Source: Lamellibrachia columna (Eukaryota; Annelida; Polychaeta; Sabellida; Siboglinidae). Taken from it: DNA of 64,000 nt. The notes beneath the pieces were generated by a model. The model was not told the origin of the DNA, searched no databases, and was given only the letters and a program-made list of their open reading frames with translations. Position 1 is the first letter of the stretch. Each line of letters opens with the position of its first letter. The stretch spans positions 38,766,990 through 38,830,989 of the forward strand of contig OY759274.1 of NCBI GenBank assembly GCA_963662155.1, written 5' to 3'. The translations under genes were made by a program, and so were the position numbers. Below, one piece after another: positions 19,964 through 52,575 of this stretch.

Positions 19964-20672
19964 AACATCTAGTGTTATAGTATTTCCTCTTCAAAACGCC
20001 TCTGCAGCAAATGTAGTAGTTGCTGTAATATGCTTTGGTACCACAACATCTGTTGTTCAAGCCTTTTGGTTGCAAAACGCCACTGCAGCAAACACGGGAG
20101 TTGCTGTAGTACGCTTTGGTACCACAACATCTGTTGTTAAAGCCTTTTGGTTGCAAAACGCCACTGCAGCAAACACGGGAGTTGCTGTAGTACGCTTCGG
20201 TACCACAACATCTGTTGTTAAAGCCTTTTGGTTGCAAAACGCCACTGCAGCAAACATGGGATTTGCTGTAGTACGCTTTGGAACCACACCATCTGTTGTT
20301 AAAGCCTTTTGGTTGCAAAACGCCATTGTAGCAAACATGGGAGTTGCTGTAGTACGCTTTAGTACCACAACATCTGTTGTTCAAGCCTTTTGGTTGCAAA
20401 ACGCCACTGCAGCAAACACGGGAGTTGCTGTAGTACGCTTTGGTACCACAACATCTGTTGTTAAAGCCTTTTGGTTGCAAAACGCCGCTGCAGCAAACAC
20501 GGGAGTTGCTATAGTACGCTTTGGTACCACAACATCTGTTGTTAAAGCCTTTTGGTTGCAAAACGCCACTGCAGCAAACACGGGAGTTGCTGTAGTACGC
20601 CTTAGTACCACAACATCTGTTGTTAAAGCCTTTTGGTTGCAAAACGCCGCTGCAACAAACATAGTAGTGGCG
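19964..20672. repeat. 81-bp minisatellite, about nine units, open on both strands
   Basis: The period is exactly 81 bp (GGTACCACAACATCTGTTG recurs at 20037 and 20118). The unit is 27 codons long. The plus frame stays open for 264 codons with repeat TTTSVVKAFWLQNATAANTG followed by VAVVRFG; minus-strand frames of 226 and about 130 codons are also open. First and last units are diverged. Each unit carries two inverted repeats: ACAACA-TC-TGTTGT, and ACTGCAGCAAAC against GTTGCTGTAGT. Nothing shows that any frame is translated; a repeat length divisible by three keeps frames open by itself. Confidence 0.9.
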
Positions 20673-28526: not shown

Positions 28527-29240
28527 GAACCATGTCATTAGGGTGCACGCGAAACCATGCAGTTCGCCGATATATGGCTACTCTTGAGTGCCGAATGAGC
28601 GTCCCTATACGCGTATTTATTCGATGAAAAATGCCACCCTATACGCACCTTATTTGGCACTATACTGTTATTAAATTTTAACATTTGTGCCAGCCTATAT
28701 TCTCCGCTAATCGTGGCAAATTATGCAGGTTATAACTTTTAGGAGAGCAATTGTTCTCAATCCCTATTGCTAGAGCTAATCAATCATCCACGGAGCGGTT
28801 TACCGCTCACGATAAAATCACTTGCTCACAACTGGAGCTGCATGTGGCTATTAGTTAAAACGCCATTATCACCGCGTAAACCGACCGTAATTGGCCGCTG
28901 TTCACAGCGCCTCAAACCGGTCTTAACCGGCTGGCGGCGGTTTTTCCCCTGAAACGGGCTTGCGTATTCAATTCAATAAAACTTTAATGTCCATTTAAAA
29001 ACAGAAATTTCCAGGTTTTTCCGCTCATATAAAATTTGGTTACTATATCTGCGGTGACGCGAATACGCACAAAGTTTATGCATATTCGGCAGAAAATACC
29101 CCGCGATCCGCATAGTTTTCTAGGGACGCCTTGGCTTTACGTCGAGTAAAAAATTGCTTTGGCGCTAAAAAAGACAAATATACTAGTGACTTTTTCGCAC
29201 TGTACTATTATTTGTTTTGAACAATTTGCTCCCCTATGTG
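28527..29240. other. No gene recognised
   Basis: Non-coding sequence between the MITE and the long (TGCG)n tract. ACGCACCTTATTTGGCA at 28634 echoes ACGCACTTTATTTGGTA at 28356, on the other side of the MITE. Confidence 0.4.
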
Positions 29241-30394
<1,154 letters not shown>

Positions 30395-30714
30395 CAAAAT
30401 ATATTATTTTCCCAATCATGCATATTTAAAATCTAAATATGCATGCCACTTGGTGAATCACTATGGAGTGATCTTAGCCTTAGGTAGGCACTTCAAACAA
30501 AAATGAGATATCATGGTAGAACATTGGCAATTGATTTAAATGAAAGGTGACGTGTAAAGGAACCAAAAACTGTTTATTTTATCAATATATCTTTATTAGA
30601 GCCAAAGATATTATGATTTTAATGCGGTTAAAATCCGAAAATTTTGTGTATCTTGTATAAAGGCAAAAGTCTCTCATTTTTGTGTTATTTTTCAATAAAT
30701 GTATGATTAAAATG

Positions 30715-31440
30715 GCATAACTTTTTTGTTTGTATATATATTTTAATCATTTCTTCAGGAGTTGCAAGCACATTAAGTAGGGTCATAGATATACATAGTC
30801 CAGTCATGTATCATTAATAGTAACTCAGTTAATGCAATTAATAAGTCAATATTGGCTATTTAGTGCATGAATTCAACTGACTGACACATTTTGATAAAAG
30901 GCAATAACTTCCATGATTATGAAGATATTTGTATAATTTGTTCAGGGTTTACAAACTCATTAACAAGGGTCATACAAATACATCACCCACTCATTTCATA
31001 ACTCATTTTATGCAATTAATAAGTCAACATTGGTTAATTAATGCGCAACCTCAACAGACCAACACCTTTTAATAAAAGGCCATAACTTCCATGATTATGA
31101 AGATATTTGCATAATTTGTTCAGGGTTTACAAATTCATTAAACAAGGTCATAAAATATACATAACTCAATTGATGCAATTAATAAGTCAATATTGGCTAA
31201 TAAATGCACAAACGCAACAGGTCAACACTTTTTTTATAAAAGGCCATAACTTCAATCATTATGAAGATATTTGTATAATTTCAAAACGCATTAAGTAGGG
31301 TCATAAATATACATTAGTCATCATTAATAGTAACTCAATTAATAAGTCAACAATGGCTAATTAGCAAGCTATTTCATCAGACCAAATCATTTCAATAGAA
31401 AGCCATAACATCCATGATTATGAAGTTATTTGTATAACAT
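30715..31440. repeat. Satellite-like tandem repeat, four to five units of 160-180 bp
   Basis: The block CCATAACTTCCATGATTATG, AAGATATTTGTATAATTTG, GGGTCATA.ATATACA, GCAATTAATAAGTCAATATT recurs with landmark starts near 30900, 31078, 31241 and 31401. Spacing is about 178, 163 and 160 bp. Units are diverged by substitutions and small indels. Confidence 0.85.
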
Positions 31441-31944
31441 TTGGGCAGAGCCTGGTCTTTCATTCCCTGCCAAATATGTATATATACATACACATGCACG
31501 CACGCACGCACACACAAAGAACACCAAAATAATTTTGCGTATTGACAATGATGAAATAATTGTTTGAGAAATATATACTAATTGGTGTTCCATATAGGGT
31601 ACTAAATGTTTTTTTGTGAAGAAAAACAATGCCATTGCATAAATATTACACAATTTATTACATATTTCAGTCACTTTTGTCATAAAATAATGTTGACTTT
31701 ACATTGTGCAATTCAACATGATGTAATTTTTATAATTTTTTTACAGTATTTCATTGTTGAATCCAACATTTCTTGTGTTGAATGGACAACGGCTGCAAGA
31801 TTCTACATTATTCCATCTACGAGCCAAGTGCATGATGATTTTTCACAGTACACTGTATGCTGTCTTAACCAATAAAGTATATATATTTTTTATGATATGT
31901 TAATATAATGTTACTAATATAAATATATATATATATACACACAC

Positions 31945-32170
31945 AAGTGTTTTGCATTCTATGTGAAGCCCCTGCACAGCTGGCCATAGACAAATATTTC
32001 ACACCAGCTGACGTTGCTGGCTGGCAAGGGTGACCATGAACAACACTCCCAACTGCCCTCGACAAAGATCTGCTGGAAGTCAGCAAGCGTCTTCAAAACC
32101 AGCAAATATCTATACTGGCTGAGATCGCATAACCGAAATCTATGGAAGAACTTCAGCCAGAGCATCTTTA
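31945..32170 (+). pseudogene. Coding-like fragment of unknown family
   Basis: A frame reads CILCEAPAQLAIDKYFTPAD VAGWQG, with two stops, then TLPTALDKDLLEVSKRLQNQ, a stop, and SMEELQPEHL ending TAA before an AATAAA at 32171. Composition and helix-like periodicity look protein-derived, but at least three in-frame stops are present. It lies 1.2 kb upstream of the SET/recombinase gene and on the same strand, so it could be a decayed upstream exon or an unrelated retrocopy. Family not recognised. Confidence 0.3.
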
Positions 32171-33329
32171 AATAAAATTTATTTAAATGAATCATACATT
32201 TCTTGCTGCAGTTATGATTTGGTCTAATTATCTTGATTCTGCATGTAAATATTGTAACATTGGCACTGGCAGCTTGTCACAAAATGTCTTGTTGTAATTC
32301 AATAATTAATTGTAACTGTTTTACAAGTATTTTAACTAAAAAATGACTTAACAATTAGTTTCCACTCAATGAATAAAACACTTAATAACAATCAGTTTGT
32401 ACTCAATGAATAAAATAATTAATTGTTCTTGTAATTGAGAATATAAATCTCTTGCGCAGTGTTTTTATGTATTTTTTTAAATCATTGAAAAATTGCATTA
32501 TTTTTTATTCTTGTATTTTTCTAGGTTTTATCCAAGACCCACACAACATAAACATTAATATAATATCATGTAAAACAGATGGTATTGGCTTTGTAGTAAA
32601 TTCAATTCAGAGAAATGTAAATAAGCGATCATTTCGTTCTGGAGACTCGTTCTCACTGTCACAGATCCGTAAAACTTCACAATGTTGCGGTTGACTAAAA
32701 CCACATTTCGCGTTCGCGCGGAAACAAGATATTTCCCCCACATACTAACTTCGACATATAGAAGGCAACCACAACATTGAAATATTCTGAGGAATTCGAT
32801 GAAGTTGTGCTACTTGCATTTGAAATACACCTATGAAGTCTAACTTACATTTTGTAAGCTTTATTTTGGTCCAATTTCGATAAGAAAAACATGACACGAA
32901 AGTTAACTTATCGCTTTCAAAGGTGCCATCAAAGCTGACGAAAATGAATGGAAGCAGCCGATAAAACAAGCGGCGAAACAAAACGTTAACGAGATTCCAG
33001 TAATCGTAACGGCGTTAAATCGTGAACGGATTTTCGTGCGCGCGGAACAACTGAGTCAGCGCATTTTGTTGAAGTGCCTATCTTAGGAATCATTTCTACT
33101 TTTATGTACAGTTACTAGACTCAGTACTAAGGTATATGTTTCAGGATGCATTACTGTTACAATTCTGTAAATAATACATTTTAGCGACCATCAATATATT
33201 CAGTTACAACATTAAATCTGTTTCTGCATTTCCCGTGTATGTGATGCCACATTAAAAGCTAGCATATCTAATAAGAATGTACGTAATGATTTGTGTTTGA
33301 CGTACGTGGTTTGATCTTCTTTAATCTAG
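32171..33329. other. Upstream of the SET exon; one doubtful exon
   Basis: Mostly non-coding. At 32525-32590 a TTTTTCTAG acceptor leads into DPHNININIISCKTDGIGFV, faintly similar to the segment before the first SET motif. It is not strong enough to call. Positions 32700-33060 are locally richer in CpG. Confidence 0.3.
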
Positions 33330-33513
33330 TGGCAACATAAGGCGAAGGCGTGTGTGTCATGGTGTTTTCGCAAAGCACAACTTTGACAAATGAGCCTTTC
33401 TTTTACACTATCAAGGATAACTTCTTTCATGCAAGAAAGCTTTAAGCCAATTCTGCAGAAGAGCGAGCATTCATATACTACTTCAAGAACAGTCAGAGTG
33501 GGTGTACAATGTG
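33330..33513 (+). pseudogene. SET N-terminal exon
   Basis: Acceptor TTTAATCTAG, donor GTGAGG. The frame gives HGVFAKHNFDK, TGA (33391-33393), AFLLHYQG, TAA (33418-33420). After a shift of frame near 33460 it gives ERAFIYYFKNSQSGCTM. The final two bases (TG) combine with T at 33821 to make Cys before VDTA, the expected CVDAT-like SET motif. Confidence 0.7.
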
Positions 33514-33820
33514 GTGAGGTTGCCTTTTCACTGTAGAAATATGCCCCTCATGGACCAGTGTATGTTTGTAAATACCTAAGCATTCTGAGACATTTTGATA
33601 CTATGAGAAATATATATGTTATGATATATACACGAATGCTAGAATTATGTTGATGAATATCTTAGCTGCTTCCAACTAAGCATTAAAGTATAGCTTATGT
33701 AAATGTTCTGGAAAGTTTATGGAGTTGAATATAATGGTCAACAGTTTATAATAGGATATATGTAATGACAACTCTCCAAGTATTTGTCCATTTAAATGCC
33801 TAATACTACATATTGTTCAG

Positions 33821-36026
33821 TGTTGATACAGCTCTTGATCCATTCGATTTGAACATTGCAAGAATGGTTAATCATGCATCCGGTCCTCCACTTCAGAACT
33901 GTAACATGGTAATTGTGATGTGTCCATCTGGCTGCCCAAACCTATGTCTCTTTGCTTCAAGAGACATTCGTGCTGCCGAGGAACTGCGCTATGATTATGG
34001 AGGTGGACGCTCTCCATGGCAGAAAAAGGCTGAAACAAGAATTTCAATTGGAAAACGACATAAATCAACTTACGATGATGATTCTGTTGTATCAAATAGT
34101 TACTCTAGTGCCATATATCACAATGAATCAGATGAGGATTACAATCCTTTAGAAGACGAAAGTGCATCAGTTGACTTGAAGGCCAACGGAGATACATCAG
34201 ACATAGAAGAAGATCATTGTGAAAGTAGGTTGTCAGATGAATTGTCTGAAGTTTTTCCCATGTATAATAAGGCCAGCAGTAGTACGGAAACAATCACTGG
34301 ATGCCACTCAATTAGTAGCAGTACATCAGTTCACCAGGAAGACAAACTCTACGTGCAGCAGACTGTGGTGGGTGGTAAAAAATGACAGCTGAAGAACCAC
34401 AGTTGTCTATATTGTGAAAAGCAAATTTCCAAAATGGCAAGACATTTGGAACAAGCACATGCAGATGAGTTGGAAGTAGCAAAAGTGCTAAATCTTACTA
34501 AAAAATCAAAAGAAAGAAGGGCAGCTTGGGCAGCCTTGGTTAACAAAGGTGACTTTAATCACAATTTCAGCGTAATTGAAAATGGATCCGGCTGCATTAT
34601 TCCAAGATACAGAGCCAGACCAACTCAGTTGTCACAAACTAGTGATTATGTACCTTGTGAATACTGCTGGGCTATGTATGTCAAAACAGACTTGTGGAAA
34701 CACCAGAAGACCTGTCCACTGAACGAACATGTCCATGATAAAGCAAAACATAACGAACCCATTAAAAATGGGAAACTTCTTCTGCCACTGAAAGTGAAGA
34801 GCAGAGATCTGTATGCTAACATTCTGCTTCACATGGTGGATGATGAAGTGACCCTTTGTTAACAGCATACAGAGTTCGGCTGTATTAAAAATATGGTCAT
34901 GAAATTCACAATTGCAGTTACATAGCCAACAAACTGAGAGAGCATGGAAGACTGATTTTAAGCATCAGGAAGATCACCAGTACAAAAACAGATTTGGAAA
35001 GTTGCATTGAGCCCGTTAATTGGGAACTGCTCCTTCAGGGGGTTAGAGAAGTCACTGGTTATGATGAAAAGAACCACAGTTATAAGACTCCTTCTCTGCC
35101 ACTGAAACTTGGAGCCAGTTTGATGAAGTGTGCCAAGCGTCTTCAGTCAACAGGCCTGATTGAAAGCAATGATGAGAAAATAAAGAAGGATCAAGCATTT
35201 CTGGACCTATATGCCAGTGAATGGAGTGACAGAATTAGCACAGTGTCTCGGTCAACTTTGAGAGAAAACCAGTACAACAGACCACGCCTCTTGCCTTTGA
35301 TTGAAGATGTTGTAAAGTTGCAGAATCACTTATCTGGGAAAATTGAAGAGAAATAGTCGGAAATGACTCAGGACATAAACGCCTATGTTGACATAGTTCA
35401 GCTTACTTTGGCACAAGTGATCTTGTTTAACAGGAGGAGGAGTGGGGAAGCAGAGCGTATGAAATTGTCTGACTATGAAACAGCAGTAAAAAACTAAACA
35501 GAGCCTTCAAAGGAAGTTCAGAAATCTCTCTCAAAGTTTGAAGTTCATTTGTGTAAAAGTCATACCAGAGTAGAAACCAAAGGTAAACGAGGAAGGCGAG
35601 TTCCTGTGCTTCTAACCTGGCGTATGCTGGCAGCAATACAGGCTCTGATCATGAAAAGAGAACTTGCTTGAGTTCAGTCTGATTTCCTGTTTGCTAGACC
35701 CGGTGTTGCAGCTATGCCATACAGAGGGCATGATTGTCTTCGAAGGTATGCTAAGGAATGTGGTGCAAATCGCCCTGAACTTATGACTTCAACAAATCTG
35801 CGCAAACAGCTGGCAACAGTGTGTCAGGTACTCAGTCTAAGTGAAAACAGTCAAGACATCCTCGCCAACTTTCTGGGCCACGACATCAGGATCCATCGCT
35901 CCTACAGACTGCCTGACAACCTTCTTGAAGCAGCCAAGGTTACAAAGGTGCTTCGTGCGGTTAAAGAAGGGGAGATTGCAAAGTGGAAAGATAAAGACTT
36001 CGATGAAATAGACTTTGACCCAGAGG
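33821..36026 (+). pseudogene. SET C-terminus, zinc fingers and tyrosine recombinase exon
   Basis: Acceptor ATTGTTCAG. SET motifs MVNHAS, NC, LFASRDI and EELRYDYGGG run to about 34010. A Ser/Asp/Glu-rich linker follows, then TGA at 34383. The same frame continues with CLYCEK...HLEQAH (C-x2-C-x9-H-x4-H) and CEYCWAMYVKTDLWKHQKTC. TAA lies at 34860 and a frameshift near 34865-34891. Then come YGHEIH, NKLREHGRLILSIRK, GYDEKNHSYKTPSLPLKLG and LLPLIEDV, with stops at 35354, 35495 and 35669. The recombinase core includes RRVPVLLTWRM, LFARPG, LRKQLAT, GHDIRIHRS and YRLPDN. Xer-type enzymes have the nucleophilic Tyr nine residues after the LGH histidine; here it is eight, suggesting a lost codon. The exon ends at a weak donor, GAGG|GTTAAT (36026). 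Confidence 0.8.
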
Positions 36027-36236
36027 GTTAATTTATAGTATTTACTGGAAAAGTTACTGTTTTATTTAGATGGCATAGGAAAGTTAATAATTTATGAAGG
36101 GGAGATTGCAAAGTGAAAAGATAAAAACTTCAATGAAATAAGTGAAAAGATAAAGACTTTGACCTAGAGGCCTTATTGTATTTACTGAAAAAAGTTACTG
36201 TTCTGTTAAGATGGCTTAGGGAAGTTATAATTACTT
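35966..36236 (+). repeat. 130-bp tandem duplication of the recombinase gene 3' end
   Basis: GAAGGGGAGATTGCAAAGTG occurs at 35966 and again at 36096. The second copy includes a degraded version of the last codons (KDFDEIDFDPE), with a small insertion, and of the start of the intron (TTTACTG.AAAAAGTTACTG). It lies inside the following intron and carries no usable donor GT at the matching place. Confidence 0.85.
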
Positions 36237-36403
36237 TATATCAAGATTAGCTGACTATATGACTGTGTTCTTTGTACAATTTGTAAGAGTAGTTTGACTG
36301 AAGTTACACATATTTAATTTTGATAACGTGTTAATCAACACTGTTGTAAGCTTAGAACCCAGCCGATTCTCTAACAAGATATTTGGTTAATTGTATTTTG
36401 CAG

Positions 36404-36502
36404 AGGCTGTTCAAGCTGAACAGTCGGGTGAAGAGGATGATGACACAGAGGATGACTCGGCTGACACCTTGACGAAAAATCTGGACTTGGAATCTGATGA
36501 TG
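36404..36502 (+). pseudogene. Acidic linker exon
   Basis: The acceptor ATTTTGCAG and donor GTACGC enclose 99 nt, phase 1-1, coding AVQAEQSGEEDDDTEDDSAD, TLTKNLDLESDD with no stop. Joined to the recombinase exon it restores a Glu codon (G+AG). Confidence 0.65.
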
Positions 36503-36745
36503 GTACGCCTTTAAGATATGTAAACATATTGTTTAGTATCCATACATGTGCTGTCAGGTTAAGGTTTTATTTGAAAAAGTTATGCGCGGATAACTCATAA
36601 AATGTAGTGTAACAGTATTGCATGCCATTGTAATGAAGTTTTTAAGTTTACTTATAAGGTAATGACTGCTTGGGGAAAACAGTGTTCAAATTTTCGATAT
36701 ACTCGGTTTATTTATTCGTTTTATCTTTCTTTGTCTTGCTTTCAG

Positions 36746-36814
36746 ACATGGACTGCACACCAGAGAGCCCTGGAATGAAACATCCAAGGAATAGGCAAAA
36801 GTCAAAGAAAACCG
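36746..36814 (+). pseudogene. Basic linker exon
   Basis: The acceptor TTGCTTTCAG and donor GTACTA enclose 69 nt, phase 1-1, coding MDCTPESPGMKHPRNRQKSK and KT. Joining adds Asp (G+AC) at the start and Gly (G+GA) at the end. The preceding acidic exon is also phase 1-1, so either could be skipped without a frameshift. Confidence 0.6.
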
Positions 36815-37383
36815 GTACTATTTATTTATTATAAGGGGACATATGGCAGCTAGAATGATGTTTTATGAAAAACAAACTTACTCAAAATGTGTTTCCTCAT
36901 GCCAATATTTTTGTATGTTTAATATAAATAAAGTTCACTTTTATAACAGTGACTTACCTCTAAAATTTTTTTCGTGGTTAAAGCTTTCTTCTAGCAAGTA
37001 ATCAATGCTGTTATTCAATCTTTGATGGCCATTTACCAAAACAAAATGACATTTTGGCAACGAGAAAGTTCAACACTGGAATTTAAAATGATAATGGTCA
37101 TCTCGTTTGGATTGTTGTGTCTGCCTGCATATTCACCAAAAATGTGGTTTTGTGCAATATCTTGGGGGTAGTTAATAAAAATGTGTTGACAAATGTTAAA
37201 TTTTGAATATCATAACTTTTAAAATTTAGAAGAAGGAAAATATTCATAATGTTGGAATTTTTTTAGAGGAATTCTCGAGTTTTTTTTGGTACTTTCCCAT
37301 GCTTAAAAGTCGTATATTTTTGTCCCTAAAACCGAACTTAAAACTTATTGTGCTTATCATAGCAGAGCACTCGTTGATGTGTC
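36815..37383 (+). other. Intron, left part
   Basis: Start of the 8.5-kb terminal intron, up to the CR1 3' end. AT-rich, no feature seen. Confidence 0.6.
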
Positions 37384-37610
37384 GTAGCAGGTATCTTTAA
37401 CAAGATTTGCCATCCAAGCCAAAGGCCCAGATGGCAAGTGGACAAGGAAGCCATTGGCTTATCGAGAGTCCAACAATGTTCATCTACTTATAGCCCGCCC
37501 TCCTGAGATATGTGTCAACCTTGTTTTTAAACATATTCACGCTGCTAGCAGTTACACAATCTGTAGACAAATTGTTCCATTCATTTATTGTCCTCTGTGA
37601 GAACGAGTGC

Positions 37611-37617
37611 TTCCTGA
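37611..37617. repeat. Target-site duplication, left copy (TTCCTGA)
   Basis: TTCCTGA here and at 41879-41885 flanks the inserted LINE. Removing the LINE and one copy rejoins the CR1 frame LDIR-KHSFSQRT exactly. Confidence 0.8.
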
Positions 37618-40600
37618 AGCGGCACAACAGCATTGACAAAGACAAGGCTAACTTCATAAATGAAGACTTGACCACAAAGCGAGCATCGTTGGCCTATAAG
37701 ACCAGACTGTTGAAGCGGAAAAAAACAATCGCTGACTGCTGGACTTATTCCGGAAGAGTACTGATAAAAACAATCAATGGAGTGATCAAAGAAGTCCACG
37801 AGACCAAAGACTTGGATAATTTATAAAGATACTCTTTCATGCACCATTTGTGAGTTACGTCGAACTTGATGCAGCGTATTTGCGCAGTCCATTGTTAAGT
37901 AATAACATTACCATCATTAATGACTTAGTGGCTAATTAATACTTATTCCGCATGTATCTTCTGTATTAAATAATGCATTTGATTTTTCGTGCGATGGGAA
38001 TTATGCAAACTCATTTGCAGGTTTTTTTTTTTATATAGTATTTTTTTTTAATATTTTTTATTTTACTTTTTTTTTTTTTTTCACTGGTACTGCATATTTA
38101 TTTTCACATGTATCTATGGGATAACATAACTTGTAATGCAAAATAATTAATTGCAGTGTTCTCATGATATCATACCAATGGGAAGACCGGCCTGGATACG
38201 TCCGGTCATGATACGTCTCATTTATAATGTTTTTGTTTTTTCTATATATCTCTTTTTTTTTACTCTTATTGTGGCACAGACATGTATGATGACTGATATG
38301 GTGACTTGCTACACAGAATGGAGAATGCCAACTTCGGATCACTACGGGAAAATAAGACTTTTCGTTTACAGTAGACAGTCGATTATTACTGCATATTTTT
38401 CAACCATAATTATTAATTTAAAGAATGTTAGATAACGACTCATTTCTCCGGTTTCAAGGAGGTGCAAATGTGAATTCTTTATTTAATATATTACAGCTAA
38501 ATGAGGCAACTGATGACGATTTTCAACCAATACATCATTCCTCCTATTATGATCTTGACAACTTTAAATTACTAGCAGAAAGAAATAACGAACGGTTTAG
38601 TATACTAAGTTCAAATATAGAATCTATTAATGCAAAATTCAGCGAAATTGAAGCTTTCTTAGAGGAACTTAACCAGATAAACTTTAAATTTAGCTTAATA
38701 TGTTTTCAGGAATGCTGGCTTTCCGAGAATGATGCTATGGGTCATTTACAACTTGACGGATATCAGTGCATTAAACAAGGCAAATCATGTAGTAATAAAG
38801 GTGGTCTGGTCATGTATTTAAGCAAAACATTTAACTACAAAGTAATTTTGTCTCTTAATCAGTATGACAATTGGGAAGGTCAATTTATTAAAGTAACTGG
38901 TGGTGGTCTATCTAAAGATATAATAATTGGTAACATTTACAGGCCCCCCAAGAGACCTTAACGAAAATTATAAACAATTCCTTTCCGAATTCACACCTAT
39001 CACTTCATCATTTGACAGAACAAACTCAGATGTTATTATTGCAGGTGACTTCAATATAAATCTTTTGAAAATAAATGAAAAAGAAGTATTCGCGGAATTT
39101 TTTGATACTTTAATATCATATAGCTTTTACCCCCACATCACACTTCCTACTAGGCTCTCCAAAAATAATGGAACCCTAATTGATAATTTCTTTAGCAAAT
39201 TAACTAAATCTACAATGAAGCCTAAATCAGGCATTTTAACTAAACAATTATCAGACCACCAACCATATTTCACTTTTCTAAATACAGTTTCCCACACAAA
39301 ACCTTTACCAAGATATATAATAATTACTGTACAGAACTCATTCAATATCTGATTTTATACACGAGGTTTTCTCATCAAATGTTTACAATAAACTCGACCA
39401 ATCTCCTAATGCAAACCGTAATATAAATTATGATATCCTACATGACGTAATGCAATGTGCAAAAAATAAACATATGCCATATAAAACAGTTAAACTAAAA
39501 AAATACAAACATAAGAAATCCGCCTGGATTACGTTAGGTCTGCTCAAATCCATTCGATACAGAGATAAATTATATAAGACACTAAAAACTACTCGACCAG
39601 AATCACCAAAATACTTTGCAATTCGAATCAACCTGACTACCTATAATACTATCCTTAAAAAAAAGCATACGTACTGCTAAACACATACATTACGAATCAT
39701 GTTTTAACAAATTCAAAAATAACATTAAAAAAACATGGGAAACAATTAATGGTATTCTTTCTAGAACAAACAAAAAGAAAACGTTCCCCAATGCCTTTAT
39801 TTATAACGAAAATATTATAGCAGATAAAACAGCAATTGCAAACACATTTAATTCATATTTTACCAATATTGGCCCAAATTTAGCCAACCAAATGCAAAAT
39901 TCCACAAATAAAACTTTCAGATATTATCTTAATGGAAACCATAACAATGTATTTAATTTTCAACTTATTAATGAAGAAACAATATCTAAAACAATAGATG
40001 ATATGCACCCAAAAGCAAGTTGCGGATTTGACGGTATTTCTTCAAGGCTTCTAAAGTTAATTAAACCTGTTTTGACAAAATATTTAACTTTAATCACAAA
40101 TCAAATATTAACTACGGGTGTCTTCCCCGATAAACTAAAAACTGCCAAAGTAATACCAACTTATAAAAAAGGGGACGAAACCCTATTCTGCAACTACAGG
40201 CCAATATCAATATTACCTACAATTTCAAAAGTAATCGAAACAATTATTTACGACCAGCTAAATTCTTTCTTAAAAAGACATAAACTTATATACGATAATC
40301 AATATGGATTTAGAAAGGAACATTCTACGGAATTTGCCGCTCTTGAATTAATTGACAGGATATTGACACGTATGGATAATAAGGAAATACTTATAAATAT
40401 TTACTTGGACCTGTCAAAAGCTTTTGACACTCTGGATCACTCAATATTAATTGATAAGCTAGAGTTTTATGGCGTGGAAGGCGTAGCTTTAGACCTGTTC
40501 AAAAATTATTTAACAAATAGAAAACAGTACGTTGAATTTGAAGACGCCCAATCAGATAGGCTTAATATCTCCACAGGCGTACCTCAAGGATCAATTCTAG

Positions 40601-41878
40601 GCCCTTTGTTATTTATAATTTACATAAATGACTGCCCAATCCAGTCCAAAATTCAACTTTATTATGTACGCCAATGACACGACACTTTCAAGTACCTTAG
40701 ATTCTTTCGCACAATATGGCAAAAATGAAAATGTAGAATTCTTAATCAACACAGAACTGGACAAAATTAATGAGTGGCTTAAATTAAACAAATTATCTCT
40801 AAATGTAAATAAATCTAAATATACGATCTTCAAAACGGCTAGAAGAATTAATATGATAAATCCACTAAATATAAAAATAGATAATACATACATTGATAGA
40901 GTAGATGAGTTTAATTTCCTAGGGATAAGTTTTAATGAACAATTAAACTGGCAAAGCCACATCAACAAAATTTCAAATAGGTGCTCCAGAATTATATGTG
41001 ATAGAATAAAAAAACTTCAAAAGAAAGCCGTCCGAATTATCTGTTTAAGCAAATATAATGCTCATACCGATCCACTGTTCAAAAGTCTTAATTTGCTAAA
41101 AGTAGAGCATATCCTAAAATTGCAGGAACTAAAATTATATCATAAATTTTCAAACAATAAACTACCTGTCTACCTGCAAAACTTACCACTTGATCAAAAC
41201 AATAGTATTCACAACTTTAATACACGTGGTCAATATAATATACATACGATTAGGGTACATAACGAGTTTGCTAAACGAAGTCTTAGGTACAGTTTGCCAT
41301 ATACCATAAATAATGCACCTGATTTATTAAAAGACAAGGTCACCACTCACAGTTTACACGGTTTCTCAAATTATATCAAACTTTATTATCTGAATACATA
41401 CATTGAACAATGTGCAATCCAAAATTGTTATATATGTCAACATGACTGACTATGTATCCGTTCCTCCTTGGTTAAAAAAATCACTGTTTGTATATATGGT
41501 TGTAGGAATATAATTGGCATTTGTAATATACCGGCATATCTATATTAATATATATATTAATTTTGTTCACCCAGTAATTATGCATTAATATTTATAGGTA
41601 TTTTTTTTTTTTTAATATGTTTTTTATTTATTTTTAATTTTTTATCTTAATAACGGGTGAAATTAATTGACAGGGTGGCTCCTACGTTAGCGATTAATTT
41701 TTAGTCTTAGTATGAGTCTCCCGTCCCTTATATGACATTATCTTTTATTTTCAGACTGTACTCTATATTCTTACCACTTCGTTTTCTCATGTCGACATAG
41801 ATGTAATATATTGTATGGTTTTTGTGTTGAATACTCTGTTTTGTTGTTTTTGGGACGAATAAATATTTCCTGTTCCTG
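37618..41878 (+). mobile_element. Jockey/CR1-group LINE inserted into the CR1 copy
   Basis: Begins inside ORF1: FINEDLTTKRASLAYKTRLL, KTIADCWTYSGRVLIK, ending DLDNL and TAA at 37826. After a 600-bp spacer comes ORF2 (38425-41449): endonuclease (SILSSNIESINAKF, CFQECWL, GDFNIN, SDHQPY), reverse transcriptase ([47 protein letters not shown]) and a C-terminal domain ending YICQHD. Frameshifts occur at the C6 run (38947), near 39330, in the A8 run (39656) and near 40655. The catalytic YADD is YAND, and about 45 residues are missing after INKISNRCSRI. The 3' UTR ends in a short TTCCTG repeat. A TTCCTGA duplication flanks it. Clade not certain. Confidence 0.88.
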
Positions 41879-41885
41879 TTCCTGA
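41879..41885. repeat. Target-site duplication, right copy (TTCCTGA)
   Basis: Right copy of the 7-bp duplication. It abuts the LINE's TTCCTG-type 3' tail, so the exact boundary is ambiguous by one tail unit. Confidence 0.75.
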
Positions 41886-44668
41886 TGTCCAATCTACATT
41901 GATCCTTTACTAATTTTACCTCATGTCCTCTAGTTCTGCTATCCTTCTTGAGTGAGAAAAACTTATTTCTATCAATATTTTCATACCCATTCAATATCTT
42001 AAAAACTTCAATCTGATCTCCTCTTAACCTCCTTGTCTCTAGAGTTGTTAAACCACATTCTTTCAGGCGTTCTTCATAACTAAGGTCTCTCAGTTCTGGA
42101 ATCATTTTAGTTGCTCTCCTTTGTATGCGTTCAAGCGTATCTATATCCTTCTTACGATATGGTCTCCATGCTTGTATACAGTATTCTAAATGAGGTCTAA
42201 CTATTGCTTTATAAAGAGGTATAATTAACTTTTTTCCCTTGTATGTCATGTTTCTTCTAATCAATCCAAGAATTTGATTACCCTTTGAAGCTGCAATACC
42301 ACACTGCTCTGAAACTTTCATATCAGCGCTTATTGTAACTCCTAAGTCCTTTTCTTTTACAGTAGTACCCAGAACAGTATCTCCCATTTTATAGTTTACA
42401 TTCAAGTTCCTATGTCCTGTATGTAGGCATTTACATTTCCCAAAATTGAACAACATCTGCCATTTCTCAGACCATTTCACTAATCTGTCTAGATCGTTTT
42501 GTAAATGTTGTTTATCACCATCAGTATTAACCTTTCTAAACAGTTTTGTGTCATCCGCAAATTTCAGTACGTTACATGTTATACTGTCGTCCAAGTCATT
42601 GATATAAATTAAGAATAATATAGGTCCTAATACTGATCCTTGAGGTACCCCACTCAAAACCGATTTCCAATTTGAAACTTCTCCATTTACTACAACTCGT
42701 TGCTTCTGTCAGTCAGCCATTGTTCTATCCAGTCAGTAATGCTATCCCCGATACCATGGGCTTTTAATTTAAGTAGTAATCTTTGATGTGGCACTTTGTC
42801 AAAAGCTTTCTGAAAATCTAAGTAGATAATATCTACTGGCGATCCCACGTCTATCCACTTAGTGATTTCTTCCAAAAAACATAACATATTTGTTAAGCAT
42901 GACCTCGCTTTAAGGAATCCATGTTGAGATGAATTATTTAATAATTTATGCTTAACGAGGAAGTCCACCATATGGTTTTTAATTAACCTTTCTAATAATT
43001 TACAAATCACTGACGTTAAACTCACTGGTCTGTAATTCTCTGACTTATTTCTCGAACCCTTTTTAAATAATGGTATGATGTTTGCTTCTTTCCATTCAAA
43101 CGGAGCAACTCCCTCTTTTAATGACAAGTTGAATACTCTTGCAAGTGGTATACTGATTTGTTCTACTGTTTCCATTAGTAATTTTGGAGGAATCCCATCC
43201 ACTCCCGGTGATTTGTTATCCTTCATTGCCTTTATTTTCTTAGCTACCAATTCTGGAGTTACAACTAACGGACCTAAATAGTCAGATTTAGTCCCCTGAA
43301 ATTTACCATCAGCAACTGGTAATGAACTAATATCTTCTTTGGTAAACACTGAACTGAAGTAACCATTTAGGTCTTCCACCATTAAAAACCCCTGTGATAT
43401 TATATTTCCAGCACTGTCTTCTAGAGGTCCAACCTTGTCTTGTACGTTTTGTTTACTCCTGACATATGCATAAAAACTCTTGCTGTCATGTTTTATGTTA
43501 CATGCTAGTTTTTGCTCATAGCTTCTTTTAGATTGTCTGATTTCAGTTGTAGCTGCATTAAGTGCCTCTTTGTATTTTGCATAGTCTTCGTCCTTTCTGG
43601 TACGCCTATAAACCTTCCACATAGTTTGTTTTAGCATTATTTTTCTAATAGCCTCTTTTGACAAGTGTTTCTTTCTACACCGTTTTCCTTGTTTTTGGAA
43701 GGGAACAAATTTATCGATGATACTCTCAATTTCATATTTTAGAATATTCCAACATTCAATTGCAGTCTTATTCCAATCTAGCTTTGCTAAGTATTTTCTC
43801 ATATCTTTGTAGTTACCTTTGTGGAAGTTTCTCTTGTACGTTTTCTTATTTTTACTTTCTGATTTTACATTGATGTCAAAATGTATTTGATTATGGTCAC
43901 TATTACCCAATGGTTCAAATATTTTTACATTGTCCACTAATTCTTTTTGTGATGACAAAACTATATCTAATACATTTTCTCCCCTGGTTGGTTCTAGTAC
44001 GTGCTGAGTAAGAAAGCTATCCAGGATTAAAAATAGAAATTGTTGGTCCTCAATCCCTATGCTCTCTAGAGAATTCCATTGTATGTGTCCATGGTTAAAA
44101 TCTCCCATTATGATACATTCCCCTTTACTAACTTCCTTTATAGCGTTTTTTATTTTTGTGTTGTCCTCTTCGTTTATGTTTGGACTTCGACCAAACAGCT
44201 TCATCGCAATCTGCTTCCCTTTCTAGTTTTATTTCATAAGCCTGAATAGATTCTTTAACATATAAAATAACTCCCCCGCCCCTTCTTCCTATTCGATCTT
44301 TCCTAAACATTACATATCCTGTCAGTCCTAATTCAGCATCTGTTATATCTATGTTGGCCCATGATTAAGTTATACCAATTATGTGAGGGTTTTTCTTATT
44401 TACTATGCTCCTTGCATTTAAACATATGCATCTATAACCTTTTTCAGAGATGTTTTTCGGATGATTTGATATTGGTTTATCTGTGCTAGTGGCCTCTTGT
44501 TCTGCTTGAGACACCTCTAGGTAACTCCCCTGCACTTCTAGTTTAAAGAATGTTTACTTCCAAAAATATTTGTCATTGTACCCAAGTCACTATCTACTGC
44601 TGCTGAAAGTTTGTCCGCGAATACTGCCGCCCCCTTTCCACTTAAATGAAGCCCATCCTTCATGTACA

Positions 44669-44740
44669 AATCTTGGTGGCATAGTGGTTAGCACACCCAC
44701 AAACTCCGATCACGAGGGTTATGCCTGGCCTCAACTAAAC
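44669..44740 (+). repeat. tRNA-like SINE head
   Basis: TGGCATAGTGG at 44677-44687 fits a pol III A box (TRGCNNAGYGG). GAGGGTTATGCC near 44715 is a weak B-box position. It abuts the CR1 5' end. No cloverleaf with complete stems is visible, so this is a SINE head or tRNA relic, not a tRNA gene. Confidence 0.4.
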
Positions 44741-45340
44741 AGTTCAATATATGTAAACACTGCTCTTTCCATTGTAACGCAGATGATCGTTTTAATATCA
44801 GTCATGTCTCTCTCTCAGGAGATGAGCTCAGGGTTGTTTTAATTTTAATTCGTTGGTGGGGGTCACCATAATTCCAAATTCATTGGTGGGGTACCAATTA
44901 TTTGCAATTCTGTGGTGGGGTATTCTCCGAATTTCCACATTCCGCATATGGGTTCCGAATGTAGGGTCCTGGCATATTATTTCCTCTGTCAGAAATAATT
45001 TTGGTCACTTCTGATGGTACCAAATTATAACATAGGTATACAGTGAGCATCAATATAGTTACTCATTGATTTTGTAATGCGAGTGCTACTAATTCAGGTC
45101 CACCTCCACATTTTAACGGAATAGCCCTCACCAAAAGGAGTGCGATAACTGAGTGCGATGTTGCACTATATAAGAAATTTATTTTTTATTAAATAATAAT
45201 TAATAATAAGTTCAACTGTTTTGCAAAAATAGTTTTCAAAAATTTTCTTTAGACAAGCCTTACAATGTATTCTCAATATTTGTAGATAGCAATACATTTG
45301 TATTCTTATTCATGGTTCTGTGAAAATTTGTTTTGCATAG
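44741..45340 (+). other. Intron, right part
   Basis: End of the large intron before the SANT exon. GGTGGGGT.ACCA-type direct repeats occur at 44854-44920 (ATTC.TTGGTGGGG, three copies). Otherwise nothing recognised. Confidence 0.55.
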
Positions 45341-45558
45341 GACACAGCACTGTGAGAAAAAAGCCTTGGTCACACGAGGAGAAGTCAGCAGTAGAGAAAC
45401 ACTTGAGCAGATTCATCACAATGATGAAAGTGCCAGGAAAGAAGGCTTGTGCGGAGGCAGCGGAACTGGAATCAGCATTGCAGTGCCGGTCTTGGGAAGC
45501 AGTCAAATATTATGTGTACAACTGTATTCAGATGAAGAAGAAAAAATTAAGGAAGTGA
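45341..45558 (+). pseudogene. SANT/Myb-like terminal exon
   Basis: The acceptor TTTTGCATAG leads into KKPWSHEEKSAVEKHLSRFI, then MMKVPGKKACAEAAELESAL and RSWEAVKYYVYN, ending in a Lys-rich tail and TGA (45556-45558). It has the tryptophan spacing and VPGK-C-L-R-W pattern of the SANT-like tail that follows recombinase domains in this kind of composite protein. The entry phase (1) matches the exon ending at 36814. An AATAAA at 45845 could serve for polyadenylation. The exon itself is intact. Confidence 0.75.
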
Positions 45559-46617
45559 ATGATTTTTGTAGAAGGCCGCAAAAGGGACAATAGGAAGACC
45601 TGTATATTCCTCTTATATTGTGTGTTAGGCGTGTAACCAAGTCATTTATACATTGCATAGACATGTATGTATTTTGGAACCATGCACATTTCTATTAATG
45701 ACTTGCGTGCATCATTTGTGCTATTCATATTTGCTTTTTCTACCAAGTGTTGACTTCGTAGTTTGTACCAAAATTAATTCGTTTCAAGTATATTTCTGCA
45801 TGGCTCATACAAGACAAAATGGTTGATAGCCAGTAATTGTAAAGAATAAAAATGATGAACCTGTTAACAAAACTGTGTGTCTTGTATATAGGAAGTAGAT
45901 TGATACCTATGAAGGTTATATATAGTGTAACGTCATTGGTTTCATGCAGCAGTTACAATTGAGATATATATTAAGTAAAGTAGAATAGCATATTCTCAAG
46001 TACCACATATAATCCGACAACCAGGTACATTCTTTATTCTTATTTGAGATGGCACTTTCTGATTTTCCTAGGGCGATGTATATGTGTACCCATTTTTTCA
46101 AACCGCACAGATTTTTCCATGAAAAGCGCACCATATGAAATCAATCTAGGAAGTCTTCAGTAAGGAGCATGTATGGTTTCTTCTTTGCGAATGTGTATGT
46201 AAAGTCATCGGTTGGGAAGTGACTGCAGGGATCCTCGTTAACAAGTGTCTCTGGTGAAGTATTTGCTTGGGAGCACATGTAGCGGTTCACAGTTTCAAGG
46301 GTTTATGGGAAATCTTCGGTTGAGAGTGTGTTGTAAGGTCCTCAGTTGCAAGTGTGTATGGGAAGTCCTCAGTTGAGAGAGTGTGTGTGACAGGTTCTCA
46401 GTTGCAGGTGTACAGTCATATCATTATTGTATCTTCTAAAGCAAGCTAGTCAGTATGATCCACAATGTCTATAATACCAACTAAAACAAATTAGAGTTAA
46501 ATATTTTTACAAACTTTGTTTTTATGAGCTTATTAATTGGGTCCCCAGTTGCAGGTGTCCTGTCACAAGTACCCACTTTGTACGTACGTGTGTGCGTGCG
46601 TGCGTGCGTGCGTGTGT
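45559..46617. other. 3' flank with a degenerate tandem repeat
   Basis: Presumed 3' UTR to about 45870, then non-coding. At 46200-46430 and again near 46540 a loose repeat based on GTCCTCAGTTGCAAGTGTGT recurs with variable spacing. A short (TGCG)n tract lies at 46591-46613. Confidence 0.5.
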
Positions 46618-50083: not shown

Positions 50084-52575
50084 CCTAATGTAGTCATAGC
50101 TGGAGATTTTAACCTCCCCGATATCACCTGGACAAATCACCAGACCACTAATAACAGCACTGCTAGCAAGCATAACAAACTACTAGAAATAACTAAAGAC
50201 TTTGGGCTGCAAAACATGGTAAACGACCCCACACATTCTTAACCTCATACTCACCTCAAATCCCTCCATTATCATCAACACCCATACCACTCCTGGTATG
50301 AGCGATCACGAATCCGTGACCTTCAATGTCAACTTAAACCCAGTTCGCAACAAGAAACCCCCCCACAAAGTTTATAGTTAAAAATCAACAGACTGGGACA
50401 AACTCAAAGACGACATAGACAAACTAAATCGTGAGTACTTCGACATGGACCCCAACTCACAGAATATAGACATAAACTGGACCTTTTTCCGCGAACGTCT
50501 GACTACCTTGATTAACAATAACATACCTAGACGATACACAAAAGCTAAAAACCCACCTCCCCTGGATAGAATGCAGAGAAGACGTAACAAAAGCCACAAA
50601 AAGGCAAAGCAAACTGCATTAAACAGTGACTGGGAAAATGTTAAGGAACTCCGAAAGCAAGCTACTAAAGCATTAGCAAAATCTTACAAAGACTATGTTA
50701 ACAACCACATTGGAGACAGCCTGAAAACTAATCCAAAACGATTCTGGTCATTTATTAAGGCAAATAAACGAGAAAACATTGGCATTCCCACACTTCGAAT
50801 AAACGACCAGCCAATAATAAATGATCATGATAAAGCAAAAGCCCTAAACAACCAATTTAGCTCTGTATTTACCCAAGAAAAGCACACCATCCCCCAAATA
50901 GCCCCCTCTACTTACCACAACATCCCCCTTCTCGAAATTGGCATAGATGGCGTAATAAAGCAGCTGAAAAATCTAAACCTGAACAAAGCTACAGGCCCAG
51001 ATGAACTCCCAGCCACAGTCCTTAAAGAAACTGCAAAGCAGATAGCTCCCATCATCACCTAAATTTTCCAACAATCATACAACACAGGTAAACTTCCAAA
51101 CGACAAGCATTAGTAACTCCTAAACACACAAAGAGCCACAAATCTGACCCTGCTAACTACAGACCCATATCACTAACCTGCATCCTCTGTAAAGTAATGG
51201 AACATATCATCCTAAGCAACATGTGGAAACACCTGCACAAGCATAACATCATTCTCCACTTCCAAAACGGACTCCAGTCGGGACTGTCTTGTGAATCTCA
51301 ACTCATTGAGACAGTCCACGACTGGATGACTGCTATGGACAACAAGACCCAAATTGACGCAATCCTGCTCGACTTTGCCAAAGCCTTCGACAATGTGCCT
51401 CACCTACGTCTTCTATCAAAATTGACCTCCTACGGAATCACTGGTAACACTCAAAATTGGATCAAATCGTTTCTATCCAACTGCAAACAGAGCGTCTCAG
51501 TTAACGGTGCCCTGTCGAACATCACAGATGTCACATCTGGTGTCCCACAGGGTTCAGTTCTAGGACCTGTCCTCTTCTTACACTACATAAATGACATAGA
51601 TGGGAACATCAAATCTTCTATGCGCCTTTTTGCAGATGATAGTATTATATATCGTAAAATTTCTTCCAAAACCGACCACGAAATTCTCCAAACTGGCATA
51701 AGCCAACTCCAAACATGGTCAGACAAATGGCAAATGCAATTTAATGTATCTAAATGTGTCCACCTTCCAATAACAAACAAAACTAAACCCAGCCCACACA
51801 GGTACTCGCTTTCTGGCCAGCCATTATCCACTGTATCCAACCACTCATATCTCGGAGTAAAATTTGATTCCAAATTAACCTGGACAAATCACGTCACTGA
51901 CATAACTTCAAAATCTTCGAAATTTTTAGGCATGATTAAACGAACTCTTGGCCCATGTAAACCCGAAGTTAAACAAACAGCCTACAACATGCTAATCCGG
52001 CCAAAACTCGAGTACTCTCCACCCATATGGAATCCTCACACCTTTTCACAAGTTAAAAGCCTTGAAAGAGTACAACACTCTGCTGCCAGATTTGTTAAAC
52101 ATGATTACAGACGGAACACAAATCCAGCAGATCTAATTACTGCCCTTGGATGGCAAACCCTTGAACGAAGACGTATCATTAAACAAGCCACAACCTTCTA
52201 AAAAATTCTAAATAACATTATTGAGATCACCCCCCCCCTCCAGGCCTACTAACCCGCTCTCGAACCCGTGGACAATACGTAGCCCCCCGGTGTCGTATAA
52301 ATGCAATGGTCTTTTCATTTTATCCCCGAGCCATTCGCATATGGAATATGATTCCACCAAAAATTACCAACATAAAAAACCCAAAATCATTTCAAGAAGC
52401 TATTATGGAACTCCCTTTCACCACACCTCCTCACCTAAACTGCCTTTAAAACACAGTGCTCAGCGTAAACTTATCCATGGTGTGGGTATGGAGACTGTCT
52501 ATGTGTGCATGTGGCAAGGCAGCGACAGTATCCATACACAAAACCAACCTATTCAAAATTTTCGTTTAACATCCT
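50084..52575 (+). mobile_element. Jockey/L2-group LINE, 5'-truncated
   Basis: Starts inside the endonuclease (VVIAGDFNLPDITWTNH; later PGMSDHESVTFNV in a shifted frame). ORF 50445-51062 covers the linker (RRNKSHKKAKQ, PKRFWSFIKANK, LNKATGPDELPATVL), then TAA at 51060. After a frameshift near 51107 come NYRPISLTCILCKVMEHI (51153 on), LLDFAKAFDNVPH, SGVPQGSVLGPVLFL, LFADDSIIYR, RPKLEYSPPIWNPHT and RFVKHDYRRNTNPA, stopping at 52201. The C-terminal end continues in another frame (PRAIRIWNMIPPKITN, FQEAIMELPF) to about 52449, followed by a short 3' UTR. The catalytic FADD is intact. It is clearly a different family from the two LINEs at 37-45 kb. Confidence 0.9.

What the first reader, a model, noticed from the sequence alone, without database searches (positions are those of the whole stretch)
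33330..45558. SET methyltransferase fused to zinc fingers, a tyrosine recombinase and a SANT domain
Five exons with fully compatible splice phases place a KMT5A-like SET domain, two Cys/His motifs, a Crypton/Xer-type recombinase and a SANT/Myb-like domain in one gene. A chromatin writer, DNA-binding modules and a DNA strand-exchange fold in one protein would suit a mobile element that captured a SET domain, or a host protein built from a Crypton. Seen: motifs and splice sites. Known: SET and tyrosine recombinase signatures. Inferred: one transcript and a mobile-element origin. I believe related proteins exist in databases, often named KMT5A-like, but whether the composite has been studied is not known to me.
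Basis: partly seen in the sequence, partly recalled or inferred. Interest (0 to 1): 0.9.

Follow-up and report, generated by a model that had tools for sequence, protein, structure and literature searches.

The report
Jumping gene carrying a histone-methylating enzyme
The window holds a dead copy of an 8-kilobase animal transposon that fuses a DNA-cutting-and-joining enzyme to a histone methyltransferase domain and sits in simple TG-type repeats; relatives occur in fish and molluscs, and some fish ones are filed as ordinary histone methyltransferases.

Summary
Window 33357-45556 carries a KMT5A-type SET domain, two Cys/His motifs, a tyrosine-recombinase (YR) region and a conserved C-terminal domain, in five exons with consistent GT-AG junctions. 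The window copy is a dead relic: stop codons, frameshifts, a lost 5' end, LINE insertions.

The same genome (880 Mb) holds at least ten further copies on six contigs; one keeps exon 2 uninterrupted. Comparing copies gives an element of about 8.0 kb with exact ends: 14-bp arms, inverted, 12/14 identical, and eight CAACTGRGGACC-type motifs confined to the ends. All 11 intact junctions seen lie in TG/GTGC-type repeats; flanks of the five copies tested are not homologous. So it is most likely a YR transposon, and SET travels with it.

The full domain set occurs in 81 of 119 fish proteins from a SET-seeded search, in dispersed 86-99% identical copies in shad, and in the clam Mya. Nearest known kind: CryptonV, reported to target microsatellites; shared descent is untested. 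SET capture is reported for HarbingerS and MuDR transposons; my searches found no report of a SET-YR fusion.

Proposed mechanism: circle formation, integration into TG repeats, local histone methylation. The last step is inference.

The parts
29240..29624 (.). left flanking (GTGC)96 microsatellite, presumed target
   Evidence: (TRF)
29625..46582 (+). remnant of the SET-YR transposon; 5' terminus missing, right end decayed, interrupted by a nested insertion and a LINE block; ends approximate
   Evidence: alignment to sister copies L009-L016, L019, L023
30478..33086 (.). nested insertion (with one copy of its 7-bp target duplication ATCTTAG), absent from the sister copies that align across it
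33357..33513 (+). exon 1, N-terminal half of the SET domain (stops and frameshift); about 0.6 kb of element directly upstream is deleted
   Evidence: frame read from sister copies
33821..36026 (+). exon 2: SET C-terminal half, acidic linker, two Cys/His motifs, recombinase; 5 in-frame stops and a frameshifting deletion
33821..34030 (+). SET C-terminal half (NHA, EELRYDYGG, PWQKK)
   Evidence: PF00856 at C14:38800823-38800990
34404..34460 (+). Cys/His motif 1 (C-x2-C...H-x4-H)
34656..34715 (+). Cys/His motif 2 (C-x2-C-x11-H-x3-C)
34847..36026 (+). tyrosine recombinase region, N-terminal part and catalytic part
36404..36502 (+). exon 3, acidic linker
36746..36814 (+). exon 4, basic linker
37282..44669 (.). 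block with two LINE reverse transcriptases; seven sister copies have about 390 bp here
46301..46582 (+). right end with subterminal GGTCCYCAGTTG-type repeats and the decayed terminal arm
   Evidence: motif counted in sister copies
46583..46614 (.). right flanking (CGTG/GTGC)n microsatellite, presumed target

Best explanation
It is a decayed copy of a tyrosine-recombinase DNA transposon of about 8.0 kb whose five-exon gene encodes SET (KMT5A type) - acidic linker - two Cys/His motifs - recombinase - C-terminal two-tryptophan domain. Shown: the domains share one gene, the whole unit is dispersed in one genome, it has defined ends, and it lies in TG-rich repeats. Inferred, likely: the recombinase binds the two 14-bp terminal arms (TTGGCASCTWGTAC, inverted), joins the ends into a circle whose junction is arm - TG-rich spacer - arm, and recombines that core with TG/GTGC microsatellites; the Cys/His or C-terminal domain binds the subterminal CAACTGRGGACC repeats. 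Inferred, less certain: the SET domain, held at element ends and targets by these DNA-binding parts, methylates nearby nucleosomes (most simply H4K20 monomethylation, as KMT5A does) and so keeps the element or its target permissive, or ties movement to a phase of the cell cycle.
For: Copies: 10 of 20 fetched regions carry the element (longest matched piece 92-100% identical to P0001; some short pieces 67-90%), on contigs C1, C3, C4, C6, C10 and C14. Ends: 5' end exact in 5 of 10, 3' end with at most 2 mismatches in 6 of 10; all 11 junctions abut TG/GTGC-type repeats, 9 of them perfect runs of 20 bp or more, which cover 1.6% of the window. Arms (placed by eye) 12 of 14 identical, random expectation 7.5e-6. 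Eight end motifs in each of 3 copies examined, all starting within 81 bp of the 5' end or 257 bp of the 3' end; mononucleotide shuffles average 0.4-0.5, maximum 3. 5' flanks of five copies and short 3' flanks of two share no homology. SET open across its intron in 8 of 10 copies. Catalytic R/K/R/H/Y kept in 81-88 of 90 relatives. Crude nonsynonymous/synonymous ratio among the 11 copies: YR 0.54, SET 0.65, Cys/His 0.66, linker 1.53. Dispersed copies in Alosa: two subfamilies, 11 loci on 8 contigs, 86-99% identity within each.
Against: YR similarity to curated models is weak (2 of 10 catalytic domains hit Pfam Phage_integrase, best 2e-6; best PDB profile hit IntI4 at E 0.5), and no fold could be predicted. 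The box II His is Thr in 83 of 90 relatives. No empty site was seen, so movement itself is not shown; target preference rests on 11 junctions of 8 copies. Most copies here are broken; the selection ratios rest on few changes (SET: 11 synonymous, 24 nonsynonymous) and include dead copies. SET activity is untested, and its NH motif is ND in 35 of 35 SET-bearing relatives with that column, although NH is kept in the window's genome. Nothing shows expression.
Confidence: 0.82

Rival explanations
1. A host gene family: a Crypton-derived gene that gained SET long ago, expanded by ordinary duplication and decayed here.
For: Multi-exon gene with introns kept in copies; relatives in several phyla; expanded non-mobile families are common in fish (recalled).
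Against: Copies lie on six contigs with identical ends beside TG repeats, and the flanks of five copies are not homologous. Recombinase catalytic residues are kept, unlike domesticated Crypton genes, which lack most of them (abstract of PMC3212892).
Confidence: 0.1
2. A transposon, but the microsatellites were seeded by its own TG-rich ends instead of being the target.
For: The ends themselves read TCTGTAC and GTACACGTATG; repeats at the two ends of one copy are not always the same type (L009, L015).
Against: Flanking repeats differ in unit (TG, GTGC, TGCG, compound), which one end sequence would hardly seed; the window copy has GTGC on both sides. CryptonV is reported to target microsatellites (PMC8869645, passages).
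Confidence: 0.15
3. SET and recombinase are neighbouring genes fused only by gene prediction or by chance adjacency.
For: Only 3 of 120 listed hits of the recombinase search show SET in the same predicted protein; several start just before the Cys/His motifs.
Against: SET C-half, Cys/His motifs and recombinase are one open frame in P0001 and in an uninterrupted exon 2 of 744-749 codons; 81 of 119 proteins from the SET search carry all domains, and the unit is copied together.
Confidence: 0.04
4. SET was captured more than once by this recombinase family (a sub-question within the transposon reading).
For: A profile of the fish fusion SETs scores human KMT5A (118 bits) above the Mya (77) and window (66) SETs; many relatives show no SET in the predicted protein.
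Against: The window SET alone scores up to 65 bits against fish fusion SETs and 34 against human KMT5A; fish, Mya and window share the turn DYGxxxxPW directly before the linker. The window SET is broken, which lowers its score.
Confidence: 0.35

Closest known systems
CryptonV transposons (Repbase; cnidarians)
   Same: YR-encoding animal DNA transposons, some families specific for microsatellites (one sentence and a reference title in PMC8869645, passages; listed as a group in PMC5753468, passages).
   Different: The original report (Repbase Reports 2012) is not held; no CryptonV sequence could be compared; the passages seen do not mention SET.
CryptonA / CryptonI
   Same: Animal DNA transposons with a YR and no reverse transcriptase.
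   Different: Published as lacking terminal repeats and a C-terminal domain (PMC3212892 section 8); here there are inverted arms, a C-terminal domain, SET and Cys/His motifs. No DUF3504 match.
HarbingerS and MuDR transposons with SET (oomycetes)
   Same: DNA transposons that took up a SET histone methyltransferase gene (stated in PMC12730594, passages).
   Different: Not YR elements (recalled: DDE transposases) and from oomycetes; here SET is fused in one protein with a YR, in animals, and is KMT5A-type.
SETMAR (Metnase)
   Same: SET domain fused to a transposon enzyme.
   Different: A host gene that began when an Hsmar1 element integrated downstream of a SET gene (start of the abstract of PMC6326780, listing), not a mobile unit carrying SET.
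KMT5A (SETD8, H4K20 methyltransferase)
   Same: Best match of the SET domain.
   Different: Host gene without recombinase; the transposon domain has a short post-SET turn (DYGxxxxPW) and ND for NH in the other relatives examined.
Telomere-targeting YRs of endogenous nimaviruses
   Same: YR with a C2H2 zinc domain that inserts into a simple repeat (PMC10871703, abstract and passages).
   Different: Very large viral genomes, telomere motif or 28S rDNA; 'SET domain' and 'methyltransferase' do not occur in the paper's text.

Membership tests
Tyrosine recombinase | Catalytic residues R, K, HxxR, H/W, Y at family spacing | tested here: met
   R618 88/90, K665 85/90, R738 82/90, H764 82/90, Y773 81/90, most of the rest gaps; the His of HxxR is Thr in 83/90, so five of six. 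In the window copy the codon beside Tyr is lost.
Tyrosine recombinase | YR fold | not testable with these tools
   Structure prediction never accepted a job (16 calls); Pfam Phage_integrase hit by 2 of 10 domains.
Crypton DNA transposon | YR without reverse transcriptase in the element | tested here: met
   The LINE block of the window is absent from seven sister copies; no RT-like frame among ORFs of 60 aa or more in the non-coding parts of 2 copies, read by eye.
Crypton DNA transposon | No terminal inverted repeats (published for Cryptons) | tested here: not met
   14-bp arms, 12/14 inverted, though YR sites typically have such arms (PMC3212892, passage).
CryptonA / CryptonI | No C-terminal domain after the YR | tested here: not met
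   C-terminal domain in 28 of 120 and 86 of 119 relatives and 8 of 10 copies here.
CryptonA / CryptonI | YR matches DUF3504 | tested here: inconclusive
   No DUF3504 hit, but no positive control was run.
CryptonV | Insertion in microsatellites | tested here: met
   11 of 11 intact junctions beside TG/GTGC-type repeats, 9 perfect runs of 20 bp or more, L015 5' and L019 3' imperfect; no empty site seen.
CryptonV | YR groups with CryptonV YRs | not testable with these tools
   No CryptonV sequence at hand; the term occurs in 3 papers of the library.
KMT5A | SET domain nearer to KMT5A than to other SET families | tested here: met
   Searches (fish; sister copies): KMT5A 88 and 63 bits, next family 64 and 45 bits. 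For the broken window copy itself the margin is only 1 bit.
KMT5A | NH motif and catalytic tyrosines | tested here: inconclusive
   Tyr kept; NH kept in the window's genome but ND in 35 of 35 relatives with that column.
SANT/Myb domain | Match to SANT/Myb models | tested here: not met
   No SANT/Myb hit in Pfam (11 members) or PDB profile search; the Trp spacing is only suggestive.

The most novel reading that the evidence does not exclude
A microsatellite-targeting tyrosine-recombinase transposon that carries its own histone methyltransferase: the fused SET domain writes a mark at element ends or at TG repeats as part of the transposition reaction, so a mobile element sets its own chromatin state. 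The family is spread over fish and molluscs, partly by horizontal transfer.
Probability: 0.35. Interest if true: 0.88.

Novelty: new variant of a known kind. Interest (0 to 1): 0.74.

Why it matters
It puts a chromatin writer, DNA-binding modules and a strand-exchange enzyme in one mobile protein with defined DNA sites, so whether transposons use histone methylation for their own movement becomes directly testable. It also warns that some fish proteins filed as KMT5A or SETD8 are probably transposon products, and offers a candidate repeat-targeting recombinase in animals.

Tried and rejected
Led nowhere: structure prediction of the family (queue full in all 16 calls), so no fold search; two scans of viral contigs (pattern matches, none confirmed as a relative); PDB profile search with the whole family (no recombinase, best a ribosomal protein at 0.004) and with the YR part (only IntI4 at E 0.5); Rfam and tRNA scans of the window (none); a third protein search with the Mya SET region (only itself, a limit of exact-word seeding); paper searches for SET with tyrosine recombinase or Crypton, and KMT5A with tyrosine recombinase, Crypton or integrase (no title or abstract start describing the fusion).

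Considered and rejected: that the LINE reverse transcriptases between exon 4 and exon 5 belong to the element (absent from seven sister copies); that the 31.5/46.6-kb inverted repeats are its TIRs (they are microsatellite); my first view that junction 1 was unresolved, corrected by sister copies. The SET figure used a wrong boundary (13 codons); one search replaces it. One search gave output swamped by microsatellites and was not used, except for one window-L011 match. Searches were scripts that failed and were redone. A DIRS/Ngaro retrotransposon was dropped because no RT-like frame was seen in two copies.
Full report
WHAT IS IN THE WINDOW. Exon 1 (33357-33513) and the start of exon 2 (33821-34030) give a SET domain: Pfam SET 9e-12, best PDB match KMT5A at 2e-8 with SETMAR and SUV39H2 close behind. 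Exon 2 goes on through an acidic linker, two Cys/His motifs and a recombinase region to 36026; exons 3, 4 and 5 are 36404-36502, 36746-36814 and 45341-45556. All four junctions are GT-AG. Phases match: 2 at the first junction, 1 at the other three. The copy is dead: five in-frame stops in exon 2, stops and a frameshift in exon 1, a frameshifting deletion near 34860, one codon missing beside the catalytic Tyr, and about 0.6 kb of element missing just before exon 1.

RELATIVES. A search with the Cys/His-recombinase part (read through, X at stops) found 426 proteins among the 8000 candidates scored; 120 were listed. Named sources include oysters, clams, a periwinkle, Priapulus and many fish; most rows have no name. 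Of the 120, 28 carry the C-terminal domain and 3 carry SET in the same predicted protein. A second search with a fish SET region, in long proteins, found 280, of which 120 were listed, 119 new. These have SET by construction; the informative result is that 81 of 119 also carry the Cys/His motifs, both recombinase parts and the C-terminal domain. Isoforms of one gene are among them, so this counts proteins, not genes.

CONSERVATION. In an alignment of 90 relatives that I chose from the 239 fetched the recombinase Arg, Lys, second Arg, His and Tyr are kept in 81-88 rows, and the Cys/His positions in 86-89. The His of the usual HxxR is Thr in 83 rows. In 35-36 SET-bearing rows SET's EY, GR, N and final YG positions are nearly invariant, but NH of KMT5A is ND in 35 of 35. 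The window's genome keeps NH. Whether SET was captured once is open. For one capture: the window SET scores up to 65 bits against fish fusion SETs and 34 bits against human KMT5A, and fish, Mya and window share the short DYGxxxxPW turn. Against: a profile of the fish fusion SETs scores human KMT5A (118 bits) above the Mya (77) and window (66) SETs (all). The recombinase tree (144 rows) puts the window with P0001 and P0026, and SET-bearing rows on both sides of the midpoint root.

COPIES IN THE SAME GENOME. The genome search answered once: the window is C14:38766990-38830989 of an 880-Mb assembly, with 35 SET matches. I fetched regions around 20 of the 35, chosen by eye. Ten (L009-L016, L019, L023) are the same element, on C1, C3, C4, C6, C10 and C14; L010 contains P0001 at 100%. 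L022 is a diverged relative with all domains, L026 a more distant one with SET and weaker Cys/His and recombinase matches, L025 and L027 showed only SET, and six regions had no family domain. One copy has exon 2 uninterrupted, and its SET is open across the intron too; SET is open across its intron in 8 of 10; exon 5 was found in 8 of 10. Synonymous difference of the other copies from that one is 0.6-3.8%. The copy number is a lower bound, since only SET matches were followed.

ENDS AND TARGET. Sister copies line up over about 8.0 kb (7.9-8.1 kb in the three with both ends). The 5' end (...TCTGTACTAGCTGCCAACTGAGGACC...) was found without mismatch in 5 of 10 and the 3' end (...CACTTGGCACCTTGTACACG...) with at most two mismatches in 6 of 10; the rest are masked, truncated, decayed or outside the stretch. 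All 11 junctions abut TG, GTGC or compound repeats; nine are perfect runs of 20 bp or more, and two (L015 5', L019 3') are imperfect. Perfect runs of this kind cover 1.6% of the window and 1.1% of six other regions. The window copy lies between (GTGC)96 on the left and GTGT(GTGC)5 on the right, its 5' end being lost. The 14 bp inside each end, placed by eye, are inverted and identical at 12 positions (random expectation 7.5e-6). A 12-bp motif read off the ends, CAACTGRGGACC, occurs eight times in each of the three copies examined with up to two mismatches, only near the ends: three direct and one inverted within 81 bp of the 5' end, four inverted within 257 bp of the 3' end; mononucleotide shuffles average 0.4-0.5, maximum 3. 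5' flanks of five copies and short 3' flanks of two show no homology to one another, so these copies are not segmental duplicates.

HOW IT PROBABLY WORKS. YR sites are described as two inverted repeats of 11-13 bp around 6-8 bp, and Cryptons are proposed to move as circles (PMC3212892, passages). Joining the two ends of this element would give such a site with a TG-rich spacer, which fits recombination with TG repeats. The end motifs resemble arm sites bound by a second DNA-binding domain; the Cys/His or C-terminal domain would serve. The SET domain changes more slowly than the linker (0.65 against 1.53; small counts, 11 synonymous and 24 nonsynonymous in SET) and travels with the element, so it probably serves the element. 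What it methylates is inference.

SPREAD. Alosa sapidissima has two subfamilies 40-44% identical to each other, with five and six loci on eight contigs (told apart by length), 86-99% identical within each, with SET in all eleven compared and the C-terminal domain in ten. One of them is 96.6-98.5% identical in SET and recombinase to a protein of the cyprinid Anabarilius, a lead for horizontal transfer; contamination is not excluded.

LITERATURE. SET capture is reported for HarbingerS and MuDR of oomycetes (PMC12730594, passages), and microsatellite targeting for some CryptonV families (PMC8869645, passages). Searches joining SET domain with tyrosine recombinase or Crypton, and KMT5A with either, gave no listing that describes the fusion. 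Of those hits I opened PMC12730594 only; the two reviews holding all three terms (PMC9406493, PMC10380595) were not opened. The library lacks Repbase Reports and most subscription journals, so a Repbase entry may exist.

VERDICT. Most likely a real SET-bearing YR transposon family. It works like a microsatellite-specific Crypton; membership in CryptonV is plausible and untested.

Noticed in passing
window 30478-33086: Nested insertion of about 2.6 kb inside the transposon with a 7-bp target duplication (ATCTTAG); carries a tandem repeat of about 178-bp units. Family not identified.
   Followed up: partly
window 38422-41449 (+), 41728-44553 (-), 50382-52198 (+): Three LINE-type sets of open frames; reverse transcriptase confirmed by Pfam for the first two, the third by eye only.
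   Followed up: partly
window 26495-28345 and 19992-20661: Long minisatellites: 47-bp unit (about 40 copies) and 81-bp unit (about 8 copies).
   Followed up: no
window 35961-36177: The tail of exon 2 is repeated in part just downstream (130-bp shift, 90% over 50 bp); not checked in other copies.
   Followed up: no
L022 3.1-9.8 kb; L026 5.0-9.9 kb; L025, L027: Diverged SET-bearing relatives in the same genome: L022 has all domains with about 2.6 kb between SET and the Cys/His motifs; L026 has weaker Cys/His and recombinase matches.
   Followed up: partly
P0226 (Alosa) and P0230 (Anabarilius): 96.6-98.5% identity of SET and recombinase between a shad and a cyprinid, higher than in the other fish pairs compared; candidate horizontal transfer or contamination.
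   Followed up: partly
P0085, P0137, P0139, P0230: Fish proteins named SETD8-A or KMT5A in public records carry recombinase domains: probable transposon products under a host gene name.
   Followed up: yes
SET domain of 35 relatives: KMT5A's NH motif is ND in all 35 relatives with that column, while the window's genome keeps NH; activity may differ between lineages.
   Followed up: partly
window 35672-36028: Weak Pfam match to a MOM1-like domain (E 1.5e-4, below cut-off), probably chance.
   Followed up: no
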